A stretch of DNA of 64,000 bases, taken from the NCBI GenBank assembly GCA_030680415.1, contig JAUXVE010000095.1, forward strand, positions 1 to 64,000, in the 5' to 3' direction. Below are positions 31,873-51,011 of the stretch, in pieces. Position 1 is the first letter of the stretch, and the number at the start of each line of letters is the position of its first letter. The DNA is from Rubrivivax sp. Lineage in GTDB: Bacteria > Pseudomonadota > Gammaproteobacteria > Burkholderiales > Burkholderiaceae_C. The notes below the pieces were generated by a model. The model searched no databases. It was not told where the DNA came from and saw nothing but the letters and a program-made list of their open reading frames with translations. A program made the translations under genes and the position numbers.

Positions 31873-34236
31873 TCAACCCGACTGGTGGCTGCGCACGCGC
31901 GCCTCGATGCGCGCGCGCAGCCGCCAGCGGCCGGCGTCGGCCAGCATGCGGCCGGCCCAGCGGAAGACGTTGAATTCGCGCACCGTGCTGCGCAGGCTGG
32001 CCATGCGTTCGCGTTGCTCGGCCACCGGCATGGTGGCGGCGCGGTTCAGTGCGTCGGCGGTCTCCTCCACGTGGTACGGATTCACGATCAGGGCCTCGGT
32101 CAATTCGCGCGCCGCGCCGGCGAAACGGCTCAGGATCAGCACGCCCTGCAGGTCGTCGCGCGCGGCCACGAACTCCTTGCACACCAGGTTCATGCCGTCG
32201 TGCAGGCTGGTCACGACGCAGACGTCGGCGGCGCGAAAAAGCTCCATCACCGCGTCGTGCTCGTGGTGCTGGGCCAGCAGGTGCACCGGCTGGTAGCCGG
32301 GGCGGCCGTAGCGCTGGTTGATGCGCTCGGTGACGCGCTCGATGCGCTCCTGGAAGCTGCGGTACTCGTCGAGTGCGCTGCGCGAGGGCGCTGCCACCTG
32401 CACGAAGACGAAACGGCCGATCCAGGACGGCCATTTCTCGAGCAACCGCTCGACGGCGTTGAGCCGTTCGAGGATGCCCTTGGTGTAGTCGAAACGGTCC
32501 ACGCCCACTGCGATGCAAGCCTGAGGCGGCAGGCCCAGGCGCTCGATCACGCGGCTGCGGCACTCGGCCACCGGTGCCCAGCTGGCCACCATCTCGTCGC
32601 TGGGCCATTCGATCGATATCGGGTAGCTCTCGATCAGCGTCTCCTTGTCCTGGAACGAGATGGTGGAATATTCGTGCTCGATGCGGGCCTCGAGATAGCG
32701 GTCCACCGTCTCGATGAAGTTCTTGCAGTGGTAGCGGGTGTGAAAGCCCAGGATCGTGCTGCCCAGCATGCCCTGCAGGATCTCGCGCCGCCAGGGGCAG
32801 ATGCCGAAGGATTCCGGGTTGGGCCACGGGATGTGCCAGAAGGTCAGGATGGTGGCCTGCGGCAGCTGCTCGCGGATCATCGCCGGCAGCAGCGCGAAGT
32901 GGTAGTCCTGCACCAGCACCACCGGGTCGGCACTGCGCGCCTCGGCGACCACGGCGTCGGCAAAACGCTGGTTGATGGCGCGGTAGGCCGCCCAGTCGGA
33001 CTCGCGGAACACCGGACGCACATGCGCGACATGGCACAGCGGCCACATGCCTTCGTTGGCGAAGCCGTAGTAGTAGCCCTGCTCCTCTTCGGCCGTGAGC
33101 CAGATGCGACGCAGCCAGTACTCCTCGCGCCCCGGGGGTACGCGCACGCGGTCGTCGCCGTCGACCACGTCGCGGTCGGCACCGCCGCTGCCGTGGGCCA
33201 CCCAGGTGCCCGAGCAGGCGCGCATCACCGGCTCGACGGCCGTCACCAGGCCGCTGGCCGGGCGCTTGACGACGACGCCGCCGGCACCGTGCTCGTGGAT
33301 GTAGGGTTCGCGGTTGGAGACCACGATGACCTGGTCGCCGCTGAGCCGCGTGCGCAACAGCGTGCGCAGGCGTTCGGCGGTCCATTCGGCGTCGGGACCC
33401 TGTGCACGACGGTACTCGTCCTCCAGGTCGCGCAGCCGGTGGCGCAGGTCGGCCGCGAACGGCGCCAGTTCGGGCGGTGCCGCCAACAGCGGGCTGAGCA
33501 GGCCCTCGCCGCGCATGATGGCGCGTACGCCGTTGACCCAGCCGCGCCAGCTGAGCTGGGCCACGACCACGGTGATGACGGCGATGACCAGGCCCAGCGC
33601 CGCGATGAGGCCGATCAGGTAGCGCTGCGTGTCCTGGCTGCGGCGGTCGATGAAGCTCAGGTCGTGCACCAACACCAGTCGCGCCACCAGCACCATGGGT
33701 GCGGCGGCAGCCTCGGGCGCTGCGGCGGCGGCCGCCGAGGCGGCACTGGCCGCTGCCGCTGCCGCCCGACGCGCGCCAGCCGGCTCGGTGATGGGCACCG
33801 GCGCCGGCGCCGCAGGGCGCTGGCCCATGATGTCCTGCACGCCCACGTGCACGGCCCCGCCCGCCAGGCCCAGGCGCGGCTCGGCCCGTGCGACCAGCTG
33901 CATGGCGGCCGCGCAGGACAGGTCGTCCGGAAAGCGCTCGGTGCTCAGCAGCACCCGCCCGTCGGGGCTGCACAAGGCCACCGCAAACAGGCGTTCATCC
34001 TGGGCCGCGCGGTCGAGCAATGGGCGCAGGCGCTGCAGCCGATTTGCCGCCAGGCCCTCGGCGATCGAATCCGACAAGGCGTTGGCGACGAGCTGGCCGC
34101 GGCTGTCGAGGTCGCGACTGAACCAGCGCAGCGTGACCTGGTCCATCAGCGGCACCGCCAGGGAGGCCGCGAGGATCAGCGTGGCCCCCAGCGGCAGCAG
34201 GAAGCGCAACTGCAGGCGCCACGTTCTCATGGCCAT
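31873..34236 (-). CDS. otsA: membrane-anchored trehalose-6-phosphate synthase with N-terminal sensor-like region
   Basis: A 787-residue protein. Residues about 11-31 form a first membrane helix, 32-205 an extracytoplasmic region with a folded part ([19 protein letters not shown]) and an Ala-rich linker (157-180), 206-228 a second helix, and 229-275 a HAMP-like charged segment. From about 302 a GT20 domain begins ([13 protein letters not shown]) with the OtsA signatures [27 protein letters not shown] (Arg and Lys for phosphate/UDP-glucose) and [17 protein letters not shown]20 makes trehalose-6-phosphate from UDP-glucose and glucose-6-phosphate. The sensor-like layout suggests that membrane or osmotic signals modulate the synthase; this is inference. 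No otsB phosphatase gene is in the window. ATGs at 34236 and 34230 are both possible starts. Confidence 0.9.
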
Positions 34237-34294
34237 GGCCGACCCGCCTCGGCGGCGCTGCGCCCGTATGCATTTGCGTTCATGTGGTTTCCTG

Positions 34295-35377: not shown

Positions 35378-36580
35378 TCACCAGGCCCGGCCGCCTTGTT
35401 GCAGCGCCCGACGCGCCAGCAGGAAGGTCGCCGCGTTCCAGCTTTGACCTGCCATGCCCATGGGCACCCCCGAGCGGCCATGAAGCCACTCGGTGAAACG
35501 CCAGCCGTCCAGAGCGTTCACGCGTGCGAGTTCGCCGAGTTGCTGCCAGGCCATGTCGTGCAGGCCCAGCCGGGCCAGCGCCATGACCCAGAAACCCCCC
35601 ACGAACGGCCAGACACCGCCGTTGTGGTACTGGTGCACCCGGTTCTGCTGGTGGCGCGCCATGTAGGGCCGCCACAGTTCATGTTCGCGCGACAGCGGAT
35701 GCAGCACCACCCGTATCGGATACGGCTCGCTGGCGCGGGCGGTGGCGAGGGTCTGCACGATGCCGTGGCCCTTGGACTCGCCGGCAGCTCCGCACAGGAT
35801 GGCCAGCACGTTGCCGAACACGTCGCCCTCGTTGCCGGCAAAGGCCAGGTTGACGAAGCTGAGATACAGCCCGCCGTCGCGCCGGCCGCGACGCGCGTAA
35901 TGCCTCAGCAGCCGCGCCCGGTGGTATTCGGGCAGGTCGTGCTGGAAGGGGTCGAACAGGTGGTTGAAGTGGTGGTGGGTGGCCTCGGCGTCGGCCAGCG
36001 CAAAGCGCCGCTTGACCTCGACCCACAGGGCATTGGTGTAGAGAACGTAGCCGGAGCGCGGCATGATGTCGGCCCAGTCGCTGGCCTCGTTCTGCTGCAG
36101 CAGCCGGAAGTGCTGGTGTTCCTGCGCCAGCAGCCAGCCGATCGCCCGCGCGATGCCGTCCTGCCAGCGTGCGGCGCCGACCGTGCCGTGGCGCCGCAGG
36201 TGGTCCACCGCGATCAGCCACCACAGCGTGGCGTCGATGCAGCCCAGGTACCAGAAGTCGGCGTCGCGGCCGTCGGGGTCGACGTACTTCGGGATCTGGC
36301 CGTTGCCGGCCTGCTCACGGGCCAGCGCGTCCAGGGTGTCGATGGCGCCCTGCTCGAGCCTCGCATCGCCGCTGCCGCACATCGCCAGCGCGCAGATGGC
36401 ACCGTCGCGGCCGAAGATGCGCGTGTAGCGGCGGGCCTCGGCCGCCTCGGTGCGGCTGGCGGCCAGGATGCCGTGCGCGGAGAGATTGCGCTCCAGCAGC
36501 GCCAGCGATTCGCGCGCGCAGGCCTCGATCGCCGCCGCGGTCGTGGGCGCTGTATCGCCTGCCGTCCCGGATCGGTTCAA
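35378..36580 (-). CDS. glycogen-debranching-type glycosidase (GH100/amylo-1,6-glucosidase-like)
   Basis: A 400-residue (alpha/alpha)6-barrel protein. Recognisable blocks: RRYTRIFGRDGAICALAM, GQIPKYVDPDGRDADFWYLG, IDATLWWLIAVDHL, QQNEASDWADIMPRSGYVLY and HNGGVWPFVGGFWVMAL. These resemble the glycosidase domain of amylo-alpha-1,6-glucosidase/GH100 neutral invertase-like proteins; Asp in FGRDGA and Asp/Glu in NEASDWAD are likely catalytic. It is the last gene of the glgB-to-treY operon, its ATG overlapping the treY stop. A role in trimming alpha-1,6 branches or hydrolysing an oligosaccharide is inferred from context. It might partly replace the decayed treX in this operon. The stretch 35251-35377 shows nothing. 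Confidence 0.75.
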   Translation of the reverse strand: MNRSGTAGDTAPTTAAAIEACARESLALLERNLSAHGILAASRTEAAEARRYTRIFGRDGAICALAMCGSGDARLEQGAIDTLDALAREQAGNGQIPKYVDPDGRDADFWYLGCIDATLWWLIAVDHLRRHGTVGAARWQDGIARAIGWLLAQEHQHFRLLQQNEASDWADIMPRSGYVLYTNALWVEVKRRFALADAEATHHHFNHLFDPFQHDLPEYHRARLLRHYARRGRRDGGLYLSFVNLAFAGNEGDVFGNVLAILCGAAGESKGHGIVQTLATARASEPYPIRVVLHPLSREHELWRPYMARHQQNRVHQYHNGGVWPFVGGFWVMALARLGLHDMAWQQLGELARVNALDGWRFTEWLHGRSGVPMGMAGQSWNAATFLLARRALQQGGRAW

Positions 36581-39408
36581 GGGGGCCCGGGCCAGGCACC
36601 GAACAGCGCCGCGACCGGGAATTCCGTCAGCACCGAGGCCAGCGGCAGGCTGGCCGCCGCCGGCGTGTCGCCGCCTGCGGTCAGTGCGTGGCGCCGACCG
36701 CTGATGGCGTCCTCGAGCCAGGGCACCTGTGCGTCGGTGGCCGCGGCATCGGCCTCGGGCCAGACGACGGCGGTGTCAGCCCAGGCGACGCCCTGCGGTG
36801 CCGCGCCCACCGGGCAAGCCAGCGACGCATACAGCCGCGCCGCGATGACGACCAGCCAAGCTCCGCCGTGACGGCGCCCAAAGGCCACGATGTGTCGCGC
36901 ATGGGTGCCTCGCACCTCGAGCGCCACGTACTCGGACTGCCGCAGCATGGCATCGTGCTCGCGGCGCAGCTGCAGTGCGCGCCAGGTGACCCAGAACTTG
37001 GCGCGGCCGTCCACCGCATGCGCCACCAACTCACGCAGCGCTGCGCTGCGCTCGGGCAGCGCGAGCAGCTGGCGCGACTCCTCGATGAGGCGGCGGCGCT
37101 GCGCGAAGTCGATGGGGCGGCGGTTGTCCGGATCCACCAGCGACAGCCCGATGAGCTCGTGGCCCTGGTAGAAGTCGGGCACCCCCGGCGACAGGGTCTT
37201 GACGACGGCCAGGGTCAGGCCGTTGAGGGCCCCGTACCAGGCGATCACTTCGGCGTTCGATTGCAGGTCGGCCAGGAACAGGTTGCCCTCGCGCCGGCCC
37301 AGCAGCGCCTGCACGAAAGCCGCGAGAGCGGCTTCGTAGGCCTCGTCGGGGTTCATCCAGCTGCTGACCGCCTTTGATTCGCGCACCGACTTGAGCATCG
37401 CCTGCTGAATGCGCGCGGCGTACTCGGCCAGGCCGGCGTCGTCGATCGCTCCCGCGGGCAGGCTGCCCACCAGCAGCTGGTAGAGCAGGTATTCGTCGTT
37501 GCGCGTCGGCGCCAGCCGGGCGTTGACGGTGTGCTTGTGGCGGCGGTTCATGCGCGTCCAGCGTCGCGTGGACAGCCGCCAGGCCGCGGGCATTTCGCTG
37601 ATGACGTCGATGCGCGCGCGCACGTCTTCCGAGCGCTTGGCGTCGTGGGTCGAAGTGGTCAGCATGGCGCTCGGCCTGTGCTGAGCGCGCTCGCGCGTAA
37701 TGGCATGGAAGGCCGTCACCGAGATACCGAAGTCGTCGGGTTCGCCACCGACGTCGTTCACCGATATCAGCCGGTGGTGACGGTACAGCGCCGTGTCTTC
37801 GATGCCCTTGGCCACTACCGGCGCGGTGTACTGCTGCAGGCGCTGCGCAAAGGCGCGGCAGCGTTCGGCCAGACCAGCCGGCGCCCCGTGCAGCGGCCGC
37901 CCCAGCAGCGCCTGGCGCAGCGAGTGCAGCGTGAAGTCGCGCGTGCGGCGGTCCTCGCGCGCCAACCGCAGCAGGGTGCCCGACAGCACCGTCAACTCGC
38001 CGGCCAGGCTGCCGTCCATCACGACGTGGCGGCACCGCCACGACAGGGTGTCGAAGCCCTCGAACTCGTCGGGCGCGAAGACGCGCCAGACACGGTCGAG
38101 CCGCGCCTTCGATGCCGGGTCGATGGGCAGGCCGTTGACGACGTTGGCAAAGCGATAGCCGGTGGTGCCGTGCAAGGCCCAGTCGCGCGGCACCTGCTCG
38201 TGCGCGGCGACGATCTTCTCGGCCACCACGTACAGCGGCAGCTCGGGCGGCATGCCGTCGCCGCCGGGCAAGGGCGGGGGCAGGCCCGCCACTTCGGCAT
38301 AGCGCCGCTGCAGGCGGCTGAAATAGCCGGCCGGGTCGGCCAGGCCATCGGGATGGTCCAGGCGCAGGCCGTCGATGGCGCCGGCGGCAGCCAGTTCCAG
38401 GATCAACCGGTGTGTGGCCTCGAAGACCTCGGCACGCTCCATGCGCAGCGCCGCGAGCTCGTTGATATCGAAGAAGCGCCGGTAGTTGATCTCGTCGCCG
38501 GCCACCCGCCAGTGGGCGAGACGGTAGGGCTGGGCATCGATCAGCGCACTCAAGGTGTCGAAGCTGGCACGCTCGCCAGGGCGGCCGTTGATGCGGGCAA
38601 CGACGCCATCGATGGCCTGCACGAGCGCCGGTTGGCGTCGCAGGCAGGCGGCCAGGCGGGCCTTCAGCACCGACTTGTCGGATTGACGGCGCAGACGCGC
38701 CTGGCCGTCGGCGCCGTGGTGCGCCGGCAGACGGTCCAGCCCGTCGGCCACGGCCTGCAACTCGGCGCGGCTGCCCAGCGGCGCAGGCAAGGTCTGCAGG
38801 GCGCGGCGCAGCAGCGGTCCGTATGCCGCCGGGTCCAGCGGCAGACGGTGTTCGTGGCAGCGCAGCGTGAAGTAGCCACGCTCGGCGTCGAAAGCGAGCT
38901 GCAGCTCGCCGCGCTCGAGCACCAGGCCGTACTGGTCGCCCAGGATCGGCAGCAGCACCTTGCCCGTGAGCGCCGGGTCGGGCGAATGCCAGTCGATGTC
39001 GAAATAATTCGCATAGGTGGACGACGCGCCGTTCTCCAGTACGTCCAGCCACCAGGCGTTGTCGCCGCCGAGCACACCCATGTGGTTGGGCACGATGTCC
39101 ACGAGCAGGCCCATGCCGTGGCGGTGCAGCGCCGCCACCAGGCGGTCGAACTCATCGCGCGTGCCGAGTTCGGGGTTGAGCTCGCCATGGTCGACCACGT
39201 CGTAGCCGTGCTGGCTGCCGGGGCGCGCGCGCAGCACCGGTGAACAATACAGATGACTGACGCCGAGGTCGGCCAGGTAGGGCACCAGCGCCGTGGCGTC
39301 GGCGAAGCGGCAGCCGGCGTGCAGTTGCACGCGGTAGGTGGCGCGCGGCACTCTGGCGCGGGCCGGCCGTGCCGTCGTCGGCGGCGCACTGCCGGCCATG
39401 TCCTTCAT
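36577..39408 (-). CDS. treY: maltooligosyl trehalose synthase
   Basis: A 943-residue GH13 enzyme that converts the reducing-end alpha-1,4 bond of maltodextrins to alpha-1,1, making maltooligosyl-trehalose. N-terminal [20 protein letters not shown] and [20 protein letters not shown] are typical. Catalytic residues are Asp in [14 protein letters not shown], Glu in [12 protein letters not shown] and Asp in [16 protein letters not shown]. The TreY-specific [20 protein letters not shown] is present. The start at 39408 overlaps the treZ stop. Length exceeds the usual 700-850 residues because of a long middle region. It works in series with TreZ. Confidence 0.94.
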
Positions 39409-41237
39409 GCCGCCTCCACGGCCACTTGCACCGACCACGCGGGCAGCACCGCACCGGCGGCGTGGCTGCGGTAGACGATGCGACCCGGCAGCGAGGCCGC
39501 CAGGGTGGCAGACCCGTCGTGGTCGGCAAGTTGGGCCAGCAGATGCCAGCGGCGGCCCGCGGCGAGCGGCCAGGTGACCCGCAGCGTGCCCGCTGCCGGC
39601 AACTCCCAACGACCGCTGCGTGCTTCGGCCAGCCAGGGCATCAGCTCGCGCTGTCGGCAGTGCAGCAGCTCGGTGTAAAGCGCCAGCATGCGCGCTTGAG
39701 GCGCGCGCTGGCATTGCGGCCAGTCGAGCTTGCTGTTCAGGAACGTACTTTCGGCATTCGGGTCGGGAATGCGGCTGCGCACCGCCGGGTCGGCAAAGCG
39801 GGCGAAGCGGCCGAACTCGGCACGCCGGCCGTTCCTGACGGCCTGGGCCAGCTCGCCATCGAAATCGCAGAAGTACTGGAAAGGCGTGGCGGCGGCGTAT
39901 TCCTCGCCCATGAACAGCATCGGGGGCGACGGGGCCAGCAGCACGCAGGCCGCCAGGGCGCGCAGTGCATCGTCGCGGCCCGCGGCCGCCGCCTGTTGTG
40001 CGATGCGGTCGCCGAAGGCGCGGTTGCCGACCTGGTCGTGCGTCTGCAGCGAATTGACGAAAGCCAGCGGTGGCAGGTGCGCCGACGGCGTGCCGCGCGG
40101 CCTGCCTCCGGCGTAGACCGAAGCCTCGCCCTGGTAGGCGAATCCTTCGGCCAGCGCGCGGCCGAACTGCTGCAGCGGCGTGGCCGCGAAGTCGATGTAG
40201 TAGCCGTCGGTCTCGCCGCTGGCCAGCACGTGCAGCGCATGGTGCAAGTCGTCGTTCCATTGCGCGTCGGCGCCCGAGGCCAGGCCCGCTGCGTCACGCA
40301 CGAGCCGCGCAGCGTCGTTGTCGTGGTTCTCCAGGATCAGGTGCACCGCGCGCTTGCGCCCCGGACCGTTGCGCAGCTCCAGCGCCAGTTCGTCGGCGAA
40401 GTGCAGCGCCGAGCGGTCGCGCATGGCGTGCACGGCGTCGATGCGCAGGCCGTCGAGGTGGAACTCCTCCACCCAGTACAGCGCGTTGTGGATGAAGAAG
40501 TCGCGCACCGTGCGGCTGTGCTCGCCATCGAAATTGATCGCCGCGCCCCAGGGCGTGGGCACCTCGCTGTTGAAGAAGGCACGGGCGTAGGCGTGCAGGT
40601 AGTTGCCGTCCGGGCCGAAGTGGTTGTAGACGACGTCCAGCAGCACCATCAGGCCGCGCGCGTGGGCCGCTGAGACCAGCTGCTTGAACGCGTCGGGTAT
40701 ACCGTAGCTGGCATCGGGCGCAAAGAGCAGCACGCCGTCGTAGCCCCAGCCGCGGCGGCCGGGAAAGTCGGCCACCGGCATCAGCTCGATCGCCGTCACG
40801 CCCAGGGCCACCAGGTCATCGAGGCGGCCGATCGCGGCACTGAAAGTCCCTTCGGGCGTGAAGCAGCCGACATGCAGTTCGTAGATCACCGCCTCATGCC
40901 AGGGCCGACCGCGCCAGGCGTCGTCGGACCAGTCAAAGGCCAGCGGGTCGGTCAACGCACTCGGCCCGTGCACGTCATCGGGATTGCAGCGTGAAGCCGG
41001 ATCGGGCACCGCCGCACCGCCATCGACGCGAAAGGCGTAGCGGGCGTTCGCGTCGGCATGCTCCGCGGCGAGCTCGAACCAGCCACCGGCGAGCGGCTGC
41101 ATCGCATGGTCGCCGGCTTGCGGACCGCCGATGCGAACCAGATCGACGCGCTGCGCAGCGGGGGCCCAGAGTCGGAACAGTGCCGTGCCGTCGGTGTCGA
41201 GGCGGGCGCCAAAGGGCATCTCGTGCCGGCGCTTCAC
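39405..41237 (-). CDS. treZ: malto-oligosyltrehalose trehalohydrolase
   Basis: A 610-residue GH13 enzyme that releases free trehalose from the TreY product. It has an N-terminal beta domain ([16 protein letters not shown]), then [20 protein letters not shown]. Catalytic residues are Asp in [14 protein letters not shown], Glu in [13 protein letters not shown] and Asp in [34 protein letters not shown] marks the eighth barrel strand. It starts with GTG at 41237, overlapping the stop of the decayed treX; an ATG at 41219 (MPFGARL) is an alternative. It overlaps treY at its end. Confidence 0.94.
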
Positions 41238-43025
41238 GGCGGCACCCGAGTTGCGAAGCGGATCAGCGCCAACGCACGGCCCGACAGCTCGTACGGCGTC
41301 GCCGGGCCGACGCGCACCTGCGCCGGCGTGACCGCCAGCGCGGTATCGATCAGCAACTCACCGGCGCCCAGCCCCAGGTCGGCCGGCAAGGTGAAGGTCA
41401 CCGGGTTGGCATCGGCGTTGAAGAGCAGCACGAAGCTGTCGTCGCGCACTGCGCGGCCGCGCCCGTCGACCTCGTTCAGCCCGTCTCCCGACAGGAAGAC
41501 GGCCAGCGCGCGGGCGTGGCCGTGACCCCATTCCTGGTCGGTCATTTCCGAGCCATCGGGCTGCAGCCAGACGATGTCGCGGTTCTCTTCGCCATTGGCT
41601 TCGTTGTGCTTGTCGTTGTAGGACACCACATCGGCGAGCGTGAAGCCGTCGTGGGCAGCGACGAAATTGATGCTGGCGTAGGGCCTTCGGCTGCTGCGGT
41701 TGTAGAGGTCGCTGGAGCCTGTCAGGCGCTGCGCGAACTCACCGATGATCCCGCCCTCGCCTTTCCAGCAGGCACGCATGGTGTCGCGGTACTTGTCGTT
41801 CCATTCGGTCCAGCCGACCGGGAAGTTGCCGACCTGGTAGCCGCCCGCGCCCAGATCCCAGGGTTCAGCGATCAGCTTCACCTGCGACAGCACCGGGTCC
41901 TGGCGCAGGATGTCGAAGAAGGCGCTCAGGCGGTCCACCGCATGCAGTTCGCGCGCCAGCGCCGAAGCCAGGTCGAAGCGAAAGCCGTCGACGTGCATCT
42001 CGGTGACCCAGTAGCGCAGCGAATCCATCAACAGCTGCAGCACACGGGGATGCTGCATGTTCAGCGTGTTGCCGCAACCGGTGAAGTCCTGGTAGTAACG
42101 CTGGTCGTCGGGCATGAGGCGGTAGTACGCCGCATTGTCGATGCCGCGAAAGCACAGCGTCGGCCCACACTCGCTGCCTTCGGCGGTGTGGTTGTAGACG
42201 ACGTCGAGCAGCACCTCGATGCCCACCTCATGAAGCGTGCGCACCATGGTCTTGAACTCGCCGACCTTGCCCGTGGCGCTGTAACGGTGCTCGGGGGCGA
42301 AATAGCCGATCGAGTTGTAGCCCCAGTAGTTGCGCAGGCCGCGCTCGACGAGATGGCGGTCGTCGAGGAACGAATGCACCGGCATCAGCTCGATCGTCGT
42401 CACACCCAGCCGCTTGAAGTGCTCGATCACCGGCGCGCAGGCCAGGCCGCCGTAGCTGCCGCGCAGCGCAGGCGGCACGTCGGGGTGCTGGCGCGTGAAG
42501 CCGCGCACATGCAGCTCGTAGATGACCGTCTCGTGCCACGGCACCCTGGGCGGCCGGTCATCGCCCCAGGTGAACGCGGACTCGACGACCTTGCAGCGAG
42601 GCAGGTAGGGCGCGCTGTCGCGGCGGTCGAACGAGAGGTCGCCCTGGCTGTGGCCGATGCGGTAGACGAACAGCGCATCGTGCCAGCGGATGCTGCCCAC
42701 GATGTTGCGCGCATAGGGGTCGAGCAGCAGCTTGTGGCCGTTGAAGCGATGGCCATCCCTGGGGCTATAGAGGCCGTAGACGCGGTAGCCATAGTGCAGC
42801 CCCGGCCGCGCCTGCGGCAGGTAGCCGTGGAAGACCTGGTCGGTCTGCTCGCGCAAGACCAGGCGCTGCACTTCATTGCGCCCGCTGGCGTCGAACAGGC
42901 ACAGCTCGACGCGCTCGCGCCGACTCGGAGAACAGCGCGAAGTTCACCCCCATGCCGTCCCAGGTGGCGCCGCGCGGGTACGGCTTGCCCGGCCACAGGG
43001 CGTCGATGACCGCAGCGCCGGCCAT
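41234..43025 (-). pseudogene. glgX: decayed glycogen debranching enzyme GlgX/TreX
   Basis: The gene starts at 43025 ([20 protein letters not shown], one-base overlap with the channel gene) and reads to FALFSESA; a superfluous base near 42916 then shifts the frame, and [15 protein letters not shown] continues in the next frame. The GH13 catalytic residues survive: Asp in [14 protein letters not shown], Glu in [11 protein letters not shown], Asp in [12 protein letters not shown]. At about 41573-41582, however, [11 protein letters not shown] runs straight into [16 protein letters not shown]; in normal GlgX these are separated by roughly 110-130 residues including strand eight (LLLSQGTPMLLAGDE-type) and the GNNNAYCQDN loop. 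The protein would be near 600 instead of 700+ residues. The deletion keeps frame, so the operon downstream stays translatable. Debranching activity is probably lost. Confidence 0.8.
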
Positions 43026-43708
43026 CAGGGCAGCCGGTCGCCGCGGTCGCGCGGGAACCAGCGCTCGATCAGCGCAGCCGCACGGTCGCGGCCACCGAGG
43101 CCGAACGACAGCGCCAGCGCCACCACGATGCCGGCCAGCAGGATCAGGAAGGTCTGCTGGATGAGGCCGCCGCCGATGTCCAGGTGGTCCACCGCGAGCA
43201 GCACCACGAAGACCATCACGCCGTACTGCATGAGGCGGCCGAGCAATTCGCCGTCGCTGATCTCGGCGCTGCGGCAATAGCTCTGCACCGCGTTGCCGGC
43301 GAAACGGGCGAAGTAGCTGCCGAACACCACCACCAGCAGCGCCACCAGCAGCCGCGGCACGAACAGCAGCACCTTGCCGAGCAGGTCGGTGACCTGGGTC
43401 AGCCCCAGGCTGTTGAAGGCGATGATCAGCGACGCCAGGAGGACCAGCGCATAGGCGATCCAGCCGAACAGCTCGGTGGTGTCCTTCTCGGTGCCGCCTT
43501 GCTGCAGGAAGCCGTCGATGCCGGCGCGCTCGGTGAGGACGTGGAAGTTCAGCGCCCGCAGCGCCTTCACGACGCTGAAGCGGAAGGCCTTGGCCACCAG
43601 CCAGCCGATGAACAGCACGGCCAGCGCCAGTGCCAGCCTCGGCATGAAGGCGCCCACCTGGTGCAGCAGCGCGCGCAGCGGTTCCAGCATGACATCGATG
43701 TTCTGCAT
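43025..43708 (-). CDS. mechanosensitive channel-like protein (conserved TM helix/MscS-related)
   Basis: A 227-residue protein with four or five hydrophobic segments: [59 protein letters not shown] and [20 protein letters not shown]. The pairs of helices with the [13 protein letters not shown] and [11 protein letters not shown] patterns are those of the TM-helix repeat proteins related to small-conductance mechanosensitive channels (YkuT/CmpX type). The classical MscS beta domain is absent. It lies inside the glycogen/trehalose operon, 25 bases after treS and with its stop overlapping the glgX start, so it is made together with the trehalose enzymes. Release of solute on osmotic downshift would fit; this is inference. 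Confidence 0.82.
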
Positions 43709-43733
43709 GTTCAGTCCCCTTGTTGCGGCGCCA

Positions 43734-47069
<3,336 letters not shown>

Positions 47070-47079
47070 GGGCGGCCCT

Positions 47080-49103
<2,024 letters not shown>

Positions 49104-49107
<4 letters not shown>

Positions 49108-51011
49108 GCCTGGGCTCCGTCGCACTGCAGCACCAGCACGCCGAGCGGCGGCAGGCGCAGGTTCAATGCGTGATAGCGACCGTGCGCCGACACCGGCACG
49201 CTGTGAACGCCGCCTTGGTTGCCCACGCCGCTGCCGCCATAGATGGCGGCGTCACTGTTCAATCGCTCGACCCAGTGGCCGGCCTGCGGCACGCCGACGA
49301 GGTAGTCGTCGCGCGGCAGCGGCGTGAAGTTGGCCACCACCAGCAGGCACGATCCGTCCCTGGCCTTGCGCAGGTAGCTCAGCACGCTGGCCTCGGCGTC
49401 GCCGGCGTCGGTCCATTCGAAACCGGCGGCGTCGAAATCCAGCTCATACAGCGCCGGCGCATTGCGGTAGAGGCGATTCAGGTCCTCCACCCAACGCTGC
49501 AAGCCGCCGTGGGCAGGGCTCTCCAGCAGCCACCAGTCCAGCGCATCGTCGTGGTTCCACTCGCGGCGCTGGCCGAATTCGCCGCCCATGAAGAGCAGCT
49601 TCTTGCCCGGGTGCGCCCACATGTGGCCGAACAGCAGGCGCAGGTTGGCGAACTGCTGCCAGTCGTCACCCGGCATTTTGTCGATGAGCGAACCCTTGCC
49701 GTACACCACCTCGTCGTGCGAGAGCGGCAGCATGAAGTTCTCGTTGAAGGCGTAGACCAGCGAAAAGGTCAGTTCATTGTGGTGCCAGCGGCGGTGGATG
49801 GGATCTTCGTGCATGTACTTCAGCGTGTCGTGCATCCAGCCCATGTTCCACTTCATGCCGAATCCCAGGCCGCCGACATGGGTCGGGCGCGACACCATCG
49901 GCCAGGCGGTCGATTCCTCGGCGATGATCTGCACGCCGGGGTGGTCGCGGTAGGCCGATTCGTTGAGCTGCCTCAGGAACGAGATCGCCTCCAGGTTCTC
50001 GCGGCCGCCGAAGGCATTCGGAATCCACTCGCCTTCCTTGCGCGAATAGTCCAGGTACAGCATCGACGCCACGCCGTCGACCCGCAAGCCGTCGATGTGG
50101 TATTCGTCGAGCCAGAACATGGCGCTCGACAGCAGGAAGGCCCGCACCTCGTTGCGGCCGTAATTGAAGACCGAGGAACTCCACTCCGGGTGAAAGCCCT
50201 GTCGCGGGTCGGCGTGTTCGTAGAGGTGCGTGCCGTCGAAGCGGGCCAGGCCATGCGTGTCGGCGGGGAAGTGCGACGGCACCCAGTCCAGGATGACGCC
50301 GATGCCGGCCTGGTGCAGGGCGTCGACGAGGAACTTGAAGTCCTGCGGCGTGCCGTAACGCGAAGTGGGGGCGAAGTAGCCGGTGGTCTGGTAGCCCCAC
50401 GAGCCGTAGAACGGATGCTCGGTGATCGGCATCAGTTCGACGTGCGTGAAGCCCAGGCGCCTGACGTATTCGACCAGCAGGACGGCCGCGCTGCGATAGT
50501 CGAGCATGGCGCCGGCCTCACCGCGCCGCCACGACCCCAGGTGCACCTCGTAGACGGACATCGGCAGATCCAGCGCGTTGCTCGCCGCACGCGAGCGCAT
50601 CCACGCCGCGTCGGCCCATTCATGGTCCTCGCTGCGCCAGGCCACCGAAGCCGTGGCCGGTGCCGGCTCGGCACAGCGCGCGAACGGGTCCGCCTTCTCG
50701 ATCGACTCGCCGTCTGCGGTGCGGATCGAGTACTTGTACTTTTGGCCCTGCACGACGTGCGGGATTTCGACTTCCCACAGACCACTGCCGTCGGCCCGCG
50801 GCGCGGCAACATGCAGGCCCTCTTGCCAGCCATTGAAATCGCCGACCACGCAGAGCGACCATGCATTCGGCGCCCATACCGTGAAGCGGGCCGAGCCGGG
50901 CCCCAGCCTGCAGCCGAGCTTCTGATACAGCCGGCCATGCGTGCCCTCGCGGAACAGGTGGATGTCCTGCTCGCCGAGGGCTTCGATCGAAGATACATTT
51001 GTACAAAGCAT
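49104..51011 (-). CDS. glgB: 1,4-alpha-glucan branching enzyme
   Basis: A 635-residue GH13 branching enzyme with one N-terminal CBM48 domain ([20 protein letters not shown]). Catalytic motifs: [18 protein letters not shown], Asp in [19 protein letters not shown], Glu in [15 protein letters not shown] and Asp in [33 protein letters not shown] follows. It introduces alpha-1,6 branches into the glucan made by GlgE. It is the first gene of the eight-gene minus-strand operon. The start at 51011 has only a weak ribosome site; a nearby downstream start before LGEQDIHLF is not excluded. It diverges from mlaE across 210 bases that contain no further gene. Confidence 0.94.

What the first reader, a model, noticed from the sequence alone, without database searches (positions are those of the whole stretch)
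35378..51011. Eight-gene glycogen/trehalose operon with a stretch-channel gene embedded
glgB, glgE, treS-maltokinase, an MscS-related channel, glgX, treZ, treY and a debranching-type glycosidase run on one strand with gaps of at most 25 bases and mostly overlapping codons. The set joins the GlgE pathway (trehalose to maltose-1-phosphate to glucan) with TreYZ (glucan back to trehalose), so the operon can in principle cycle carbon between branched glucan and trehalose. The channel gene between treS and glgX is not part of known GlgE or TreXYZ clusters. I infer an osmotic module in which trehalose level and membrane tension are tied together.
Basis: partly seen in the sequence, partly recalled or inferred. 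Interest (0 to 1): 0.72.

Follow-up and report, generated by a model that had tools for sequence, protein, structure and literature searches.

The report
Trehalose enzyme paired with membrane channel
In this bacterium a small stretch-channel-like membrane protein is encoded right behind the trehalose-converting enzyme TreS, and the two genes stay together in many related bacteria even where the rest of the sugar operon is missing, which hints that cells tie trehalose handling to membrane stretch.

Summary
The eight-gene operon is real (35378-51011, minus strand), but its glgX is broken as assembled (frame change plus about 333 nt missing). The channel is a 227-residue MscS relative (PF05552 twice) without the beta-domain. 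The conserved unit is smaller than the operon: treS plus channel. In 22 of 22 GTDB loci treS lies directly upstream. On a tree of 97 TreS proteins, channel presence needs two changes. What follows the channel varies. Seven relatives keep the pair although no glgE match was found in their genomes: four beside otsA/otsB, three without a trehalose or glycogen neighbour. In 5 of these 7, but 0 of 30 pairs with glgE upstream, the maltokinase half lost a catalytic-type Asp; the TreS residues are kept in all. So the channel follows TreS, not the GlgE pathway. In the window's genome the one canonical MscS gene found overlaps the otsA stop codon. Most likely the protein senses tension and helps drain or regulate trehalose; that step is inferred. 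My open-library searches found no description of the pair. Nearly all named loci are MAGs; channel activity is untested.

The parts
49104..51011 (-). glgB, 1,4-alpha-glucan branching enzyme
   Evidence: NF003811 and TIGR01515 over cut-off; Pfam
47080..49107 (-). glgE, maltose-1-phosphate maltosyltransferase
   Evidence: PF11896 and PF21702; ORF listed as 47080-49125, ATG at 49107 overlaps the glgB stop
43734..47069 (-). treS-mak fusion: trehalose synthase plus maltokinase
   Evidence: TIGR02456 and TIGR02457 over cut-off; TreS residues and kinase motifs HGD and DFEGEP present
43025..43708 (-). MscS-related membrane protein, 227 aa, PF05552 twice, no beta-domain; constant partner of treS
   Evidence: Pfam, MscS TM1-TM3a alignment, all-helical model, 22 of 22 loci behind treS
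41234..43026 (-). glgX, glycogen debranching enzyme, broken as assembled (frame change near 42916-42921, about 333 nt missing near 41580)
39405..41237 (-). treZ, malto-oligosyltrehalose trehalohydrolase
   Evidence: TIGR02402 over cut-off
36577..39408 (-). treY, malto-oligosyltrehalose synthase
   Evidence: TIGR02401 over cut-off
35378..36580 (-). GH100/GDE_C-like glycosidase, substrate open
   Evidence: PF12899 and PF06202; NF047898 far below cut-off
31882..34242 (-). neighbouring otsA-like GT20 enzyme with two N-terminal hydrophobic segments (membrane anchoring inferred)
   Evidence: PF00982, 86% identical to the L018 otsA, hydropathy

Best explanation
Shown by sequence: treS and a short MscS-like membrane protein form a conserved two-gene unit that arose about once on the TreS tree sampled, appears to have moved between lineages as a pair, and sits in GlgE operons, beside otsA/otsB genes, or without such neighbours. 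Inferred: the protein is a tension-responsive pore or tension sensor that works with TreS on the trehalose pool. After an osmotic downshift TreS turns trehalose into maltose (and, where Mak and GlgE are present, on into osmotically inert glucan), while the membrane protein vents small solutes or signals the swelling to the enzyme. The eight-gene operon here is the GlgE/TreYZ version of this trehalose drain.
For: 22 of 22 GTDB loci with the channel have treS directly upstream on the same strand. In 61 relatives, 11 genomes have the channel at 60% identity or more, all 11 behind treS; treS occurs in 13. In 369 class genomes, 5 of 8 channel matches (48% or more) are behind treS; the 3 weak ones (28-32%) have no treS in the DNA fetched. 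TreS tree of 97 rows, 40 with channel: two changes. Channel and TreS distances correlate, r 0.81, highest of 1000 permutations 0.21, n 40. Rhodocyclaceae and Nitrotoga copies nest among Sphaerotilaceae and Comamonadaceae copies in both trees. Channel and TreS are equally conserved: mean identities to the window 67.0% and 67.3%, n 39. The pair stands without glgB/glgE beside otsA/otsB in L018, L020, L021 and L155, and with no match to my 15 query genes other than itself in L152, L153 and L154. Those 7 genomes gave 0 glgE matches, the control genome G022 gave one. A catalytic-type Asp of the kinase is lost in 5 of the 7, in 0 of 30 rows with glgE upstream and in 0 of 3 others; the three TreS residues checked are kept in 40 of 40. 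The own genome has one PF00924 match, in an otsB-otsA-mscS cluster with overlapping otsA and mscS.
Against: No transport, gating or osmotic data. The association arose about once on the tree, so it is one evolutionary event; 19 of the 40 channel-positive rows came from the channel search itself, which enriches the tree. If rows with undetermined neighbours are counted as lacking the channel, the tree needs three changes. Distance correlation is expected from mere linkage. Three TreS rows inside the clade lack the channel (L103, L107, L108), and TreS rows outside it do not have it; Pseudomonas has glgE-treS-glgB (PMC8084333). The protein lacks the MscS beta-domain; the model is moderate (pLDDT 75.1, pTM 0.53), and Foldseek gave no match at E 0.001 or better, its top rows being BAR domains of low probability. 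The NCBIfam msc score is below its cut-off (83 against 100). Of the 7 GlgE-less genomes, L018 keeps all kinase residues checked and L021 both Asp, and two have no completeness value. The MscS gene behind treS in G311 is not behind treS in two of three relatives that have it; the third is cut by its contig end.
Confidence: 0.45

Rival explanations
1. The protein is not a conducting channel but a membrane anchor or tension-dependent regulator of TreS (a role like that proposed for CmpX as a membrane sensor).
For: No beta-domain or vestibule; the pair is adjacent in all channel loci with 48% identity or more that were checked; CmpX of P. aeruginosa is proposed as a membrane sensor of a signal transduction system (PMC10965496, passages seen); the OtsA next door also has hydrophobic N-terminal segments.
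Against: No fusion or contact was looked for beyond the gene maps; adjacency also fits co-expression only; the C-terminal Gly/Ala-rich helix that resembles the MscS pore helix (recalled) is well conserved.
Confidence: 0.3
2. Hitch-hiker: a general membrane-tension protein landed behind treS once and is kept by linkage and useful co-expression under stress, without working on trehalose.
For: About one gain on the TreS tree; many TreS operons do without it.
Against: Kept while the rest of the operon differs or is absent; the own genome's canonical mscS is separately coupled to otsA; third codon positions carry most differences in the 5 relatives compared, as under purifying selection.
Confidence: 0.2
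3. Eight-gene osmotic module: the channel serves the whole glycogen-trehalose cycle.
For: Tight gene packing; the same eight-gene order in L016, L019, L027 and L036.
Against: The channel persists in 7 genomes without a glgE match, 5 of them with a kinase half that lost a catalytic-type residue; the operon glgX is broken as assembled.
Confidence: 0.05

Closest known systems
GlgE pathway operon glgE-treS/pep2-glgB of Pseudomonas aeruginosa (PMC8084333, passages seen)
   Same: Same enzymes: GlgE, TreS-Mak (Pep2) fusion, GlgB
   Different: No channel is mentioned there (0 occurrences of mechanosensitive or channel); treZ, treY and glgX lie in a second operon
MscS family, PF00924/PF21088/PF21082
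   Same: Residues 114-204 align with MscS residues 25-115
   Different: No beta-domain or vestibule; extra N-terminal TM-helix repeat
CmpX of P. aeruginosa
   Same: Described as MscS homologue and possible membrane sensor (PMC10965496, passages seen); that it carries the PF05552 repeat is recalled
   Different: Encoded as cfrX-cmpX upstream of sigX, not with trehalose genes; sequence not compared here
TreXYZ (TreX/GlgX, TreY, TreZ)
   Same: treZ and treY intact in the operon
   Different: The glgX member is broken as assembled; a GH100-like gene ends the operon

Membership tests
MscS superfamily | Conserved TM helix repeat PF05552 | tested here: met
   Two stretches, E 1.1e-19
MscS superfamily | TM1-TM3a core like E. 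coli MscS | tested here: met
   Profile match to MscS chains, E about 4e-4, residues 114-204; fold comparison only weak
MscS superfamily | Beta-domain and cytoplasmic vestibule (PF00924) | tested here: not met
   No PF00924 match, all-helical model
MscS superfamily | Tension-gated conductance | not testable with these tools
   Needs patch clamp or downshock assay
GlgE pathway | GlgE, TreS, maltokinase and GlgB present, with key TreS and kinase residues | tested here: met
TreXYZ pathway | TreY and TreZ | tested here: met
   TIGR02401 and TIGR02402 over cut-off
TreXYZ pathway | Intact debranching enzyme TreX/GlgX in the cluster | tested here: not met
   Frame change and about 333 nt missing as assembled; other glgX matches elsewhere
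CmpX | Gene context cfrX-cmpX-sigX | tested here: not met
   treS directly upstream in 22 of 22 loci; context of CmpX from PMC10965496
CmpX | Sequence orthology | not tested
   No CmpX sequence was fetched

The most novel reading that the evidence does not exclude
Trehalose enzymes in these bacteria come with dedicated tension-sensitive membrane proteins: TreS with a vestibule-less MscS relative, and OtsA with a canonical MscS in the same genome. The TreS-channel pair would be a self-contained device that couples membrane stretch to trehalose disposal, works without the GlgE pathway, and passes between lineages.
Probability: 0.3. Interest if true: 0.75.

Novelty: new variant of a known kind. 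Interest (0 to 1): 0.6.

Why it matters
Mechanosensitive channels are usually seen as general safety valves. A channel-like gene that is fixed to one metabolic enzyme across families, and stays when the rest of the pathway is not there, would mean that an osmolyte enzyme and a stretch-responsive protein act as one unit. The review PMC11046441 (passages seen) says that regulation of the GlgE pathway has very sparsely been studied, so a candidate physical input is testable with one gene deletion. It also gives a natural MscS-like core without a vestibule to study.

Tried and rejected
Convergent evidence from G311 (glgB-glgE-treS followed by a PF00924 channel): not used as support, because in two of three relatives with that mscS it is not next to treS in the DNA fetched, and the third is cut at the contig end. 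The promoter and terminator scan gave nothing above shuffles. No Rfam match at the gathering score and no tRNA in the window. The PLSDB plasmid search at E 1e-20 found no relative of the channel. The second structure job and the viral fold library were not used. That the channel serves GlgE or maltose-1-phosphate was rejected; one search had looked at 13 rows with glgE upstream, at all 30. MscS genes beside trehalose genes: no formal chance estimate. One search scanned 20 loci and the window, not every long locus held; L018, L020, L021, L024, L036 and L144 have one. The queries came from L018, L020 and L144, so L021, L024 and L036 are the finds independent of query choice, 3 of the 17 others. 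A 27-residue match in L034 was not counted; the filtered frame list shows no frame there. At most 30 loci were fetched per genome search, so the TreS (54 of 399 and 60 of 398 genomes) that rank below the best 30 are not on the tree. Of 101 TreS sequences taken, 97 distinct ones went in; matches spanning 900 query residues or fewer and loci L001-L014 were left out. The tree is a quick one. Gene names glgC, otsA and otsB in loci rest on Pfam for sample members and tblastn for the rest; Pfam gives glgC only as nucleotidyl transferase with a GlmU/GLGC-type end, the name is recognised by sight. GH13 and kinase catalytic motifs are recalled.

Full report
What is there. Eight genes lie on the minus strand from 51011 down to 35378: glgB, glgE, treS-mak, a small membrane protein, glgX, treZ, treY and a GH100/GDE_C-like glycosidase. 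Gaps are at most 25 bases and most junctions overlap. An mlaE permease gene (divergent) and a DUF3014 gene (convergent) bound the set. The window lies on contig C80 of a genome of 4,758,010 bases in 167 contigs, 96.16% complete, 4.18% contaminated. The closest named channel relatives are from Rubrivivax and other Burkholderiales MAGs.

A correction. glgX is not intact as assembled. Its first part and the rest are in different frames, with the change near 42916-42921, and about 333 nt present in relatives are missing near 41580. The GH13 catalytic motifs (recalled) lie outside the missing part. Two other glgX matches over the family cut-off exist in the genome, on C19 and C155; near the one on C19 lie a glgB match and a glgC-type match. 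The otsB gene on C76 also looks short, 168 residues matching only the end of its profile, so assembly error is possible for both.

The membrane protein. It has 227 residues, two PF05552 stretches and no PF00924 match. Five hydrophobic regions are seen (two overlapping windows at 154-184 counted as one). A profile from 21 sequences matches E. coli MscS residues 25-115 with residues 114-204 (E about 4e-4). The AlphaFold model is all helical (pLDDT 75.1, pTM 0.53). Foldseek lists MscS chains with probability 0.90-0.99, but with E 0.35 or worse and TM about 0.3, among BAR domains of lower probability; nothing reaches E 0.001. So it looks like the MscS membrane core with an extra N-terminal repeat and without the vestibule.

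The conserved unit is treS plus channel. In GTDB contigs 22 loci encode a relative; in 22 of 22 treS lies directly upstream on the same strand. Among 61 relatives (own genome included), 18 have some match at E 0.001, of which 11 reach 60% identity; all 11 are behind treS, and treS occurs in 13 at E 1e-100. The two treS genomes without it, G041 and G056, have a glgC-type gene and treZ there. Of the weaker matches only L014 was checked for neighbours, and it has no treS. Among 369 class genomes, 8 have a match at E 1e-20; the 5 at 48% identity or more are behind treS, the 3 at 28-32% have no treS in the DNA fetched. On a TreS tree of 97 distinct proteins, 40 with the channel, presence versus absence needs two changes, three if undetermined rows count as lacking it; three rows inside the clade (L103, L107, L108) have glgX in its place. 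19 of the 40 rows came from the channel search itself. Channel and TreS distances correlate, r 0.81 against a maximum of 0.21 in 1000 permutations (n 40). In both trees the Rhodocyclaceae, Nitrotoga and f15 copies nest among Sphaerotilaceae and Comamonadaceae copies. In L024, L091 and L092 the pair sits in front of a second, different treS, which looks like transfer of a block that includes glgE-treS-channel.

What surrounds the pair varies. Of 40 channel-positive rows, glgE is directly upstream of treS in 30, glgB in 2, otsB in 2, divergent otsA in 1, and 5 were unmatched in the DNA then held. Downstream of the channel lie glgX in 17, a glgC-type gene in 4, a second treS in 3, treZ in 1 and the glycosidase in 1; in 14 none of these is close by, 7 of them with under 1 kb of DNA. 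More DNA for four of the five unmatched ones showed otsA/otsB nearby in L155, and no match to the 15 query genes other than the pair in L152, L153 and L154; the fifth, L062, starts at its contig end. The genomes of L018, L020, L021 and L152-L155 gave no glgE match at E 1e-50 (0 of 7), while the control genome G022 did. Five of the seven are given as 89-100% complete (G033 89%); the other two have no value shown.

The kinase half. In all 30 rows with glgE upstream, and in the 3 other rows, both Asp of HGD and DFEGE are kept. In the seven GlgE-less genomes, L045, L046 and L047 have HGA, HGA and HGG; L020 and L042 have lost the Asp of DFEGE; L021 keeps both Asp with changes beside them; L018 is intact. 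The three TreS catalytic-type residues checked are kept in 40 of 40 (one search had shown 22 rows). Five of seven against none of 30 is far from chance if rows were independent, but L045-L047 are sisters on the tree, so there are about three events. The reading is that the channel goes with trehalose-maltose interconversion, not with maltose-1-phosphate.

A second link in the same genome. The one PF00924 gene found lies on C76 with its start codon overlapping the otsA stop, in the order otsB-otsA-mscS. PF05552 was found only in the window operon, and one MscL is on C17; the genome is about 96% complete, so others may be missing. Canonical MscS genes also lie beside the otsA or treS-channel genes in L018, L020, L021 and L036 and upstream of glgB in L024. 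An otsA-like gene with N-terminal hydrophobic segments lies next to the operon in the window.

How it may work. Shown: conserved adjacency, shared descent of the two genes, third-position bias of differences in five relatives, loss of kinase residues without loss of the pair. Known: in P. aeruginosa trehalose serves osmotic tolerance and GlgE glucan desiccation tolerance, and the genes form glgE-treS-glgB and a second operon (PMC8084333, passages seen). Inferred: the membrane protein responds to stretch and, with TreS, lowers the trehalose pool on osmotic downshift, by venting solute or by controlling the enzyme.

Literature. Full-text searches of the open PMC library: mechanosensitive plus GlgE, trehalose and operon, 0 papers; mechanosensitive plus treS and glgX, 1, a metabolic engineering paper by its listing; trehalose synthase plus mechanosensitive ion channel, operon and adjacent, 3 genome papers, listing only; PF05552 plus trehalose, 0; two of small-conductance mechanosensitive, trehalose synthase and maltokinase, 30 papers, the 10 listed without the first term; otsA, mscS and related terms, 69 papers, 15 listed and not read; trehalose with MscS efflux terms, 132 papers, 12 listed and not read. 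None of what I saw describes the pair. The review PMC11046441 has no occurrence of mechanosensitive in the part held, 300,000 of 445,374 characters. Unlisted, unread and subscription papers are not covered.

Noticed in passing
window 31882-34242 (-): OtsA-like GT20 enzyme with two N-terminal hydrophobic segments about 190 residues apart, as if membrane-anchored with an outer domain; close relatives in L018, L020, L021, L036 and L155.
   Followed up: partly
L157 8362-11196 (own genome, C76): otsB-otsA-mscS cluster with ATGA overlap of otsA and mscS; otsB looks shortened.
   Followed up: partly
L045, L046, L047, L020, L042: TreS-Mak fusions whose kinase half has lost a catalytic-type Asp, in genomes without a glgE match.
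   Followed up: partly
window 41234-43026: glgX with frame change and about 333 nt missing; real decay or assembly error.
   Followed up: partly
L015 (L004 and L050 come from an equally long contig, G034:C318, with the same matches): Channel 99% but treS 88% identical to the window, with an inverted treS piece at the contig end, while G034 has another contig with treS at 98%: likely chimeric MAG contig.
   Followed up: no
L020 10768-13726: treS-channel followed by a GH15 trehalase-like gene and an overlapping canonical mscS.
   Followed up: partly
L144 (G311): glgB-glgE-treS followed by a PF00924 channel; not behind treS in two of three relatives with the gene, the third cut by its contig end.
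   Followed up: yes
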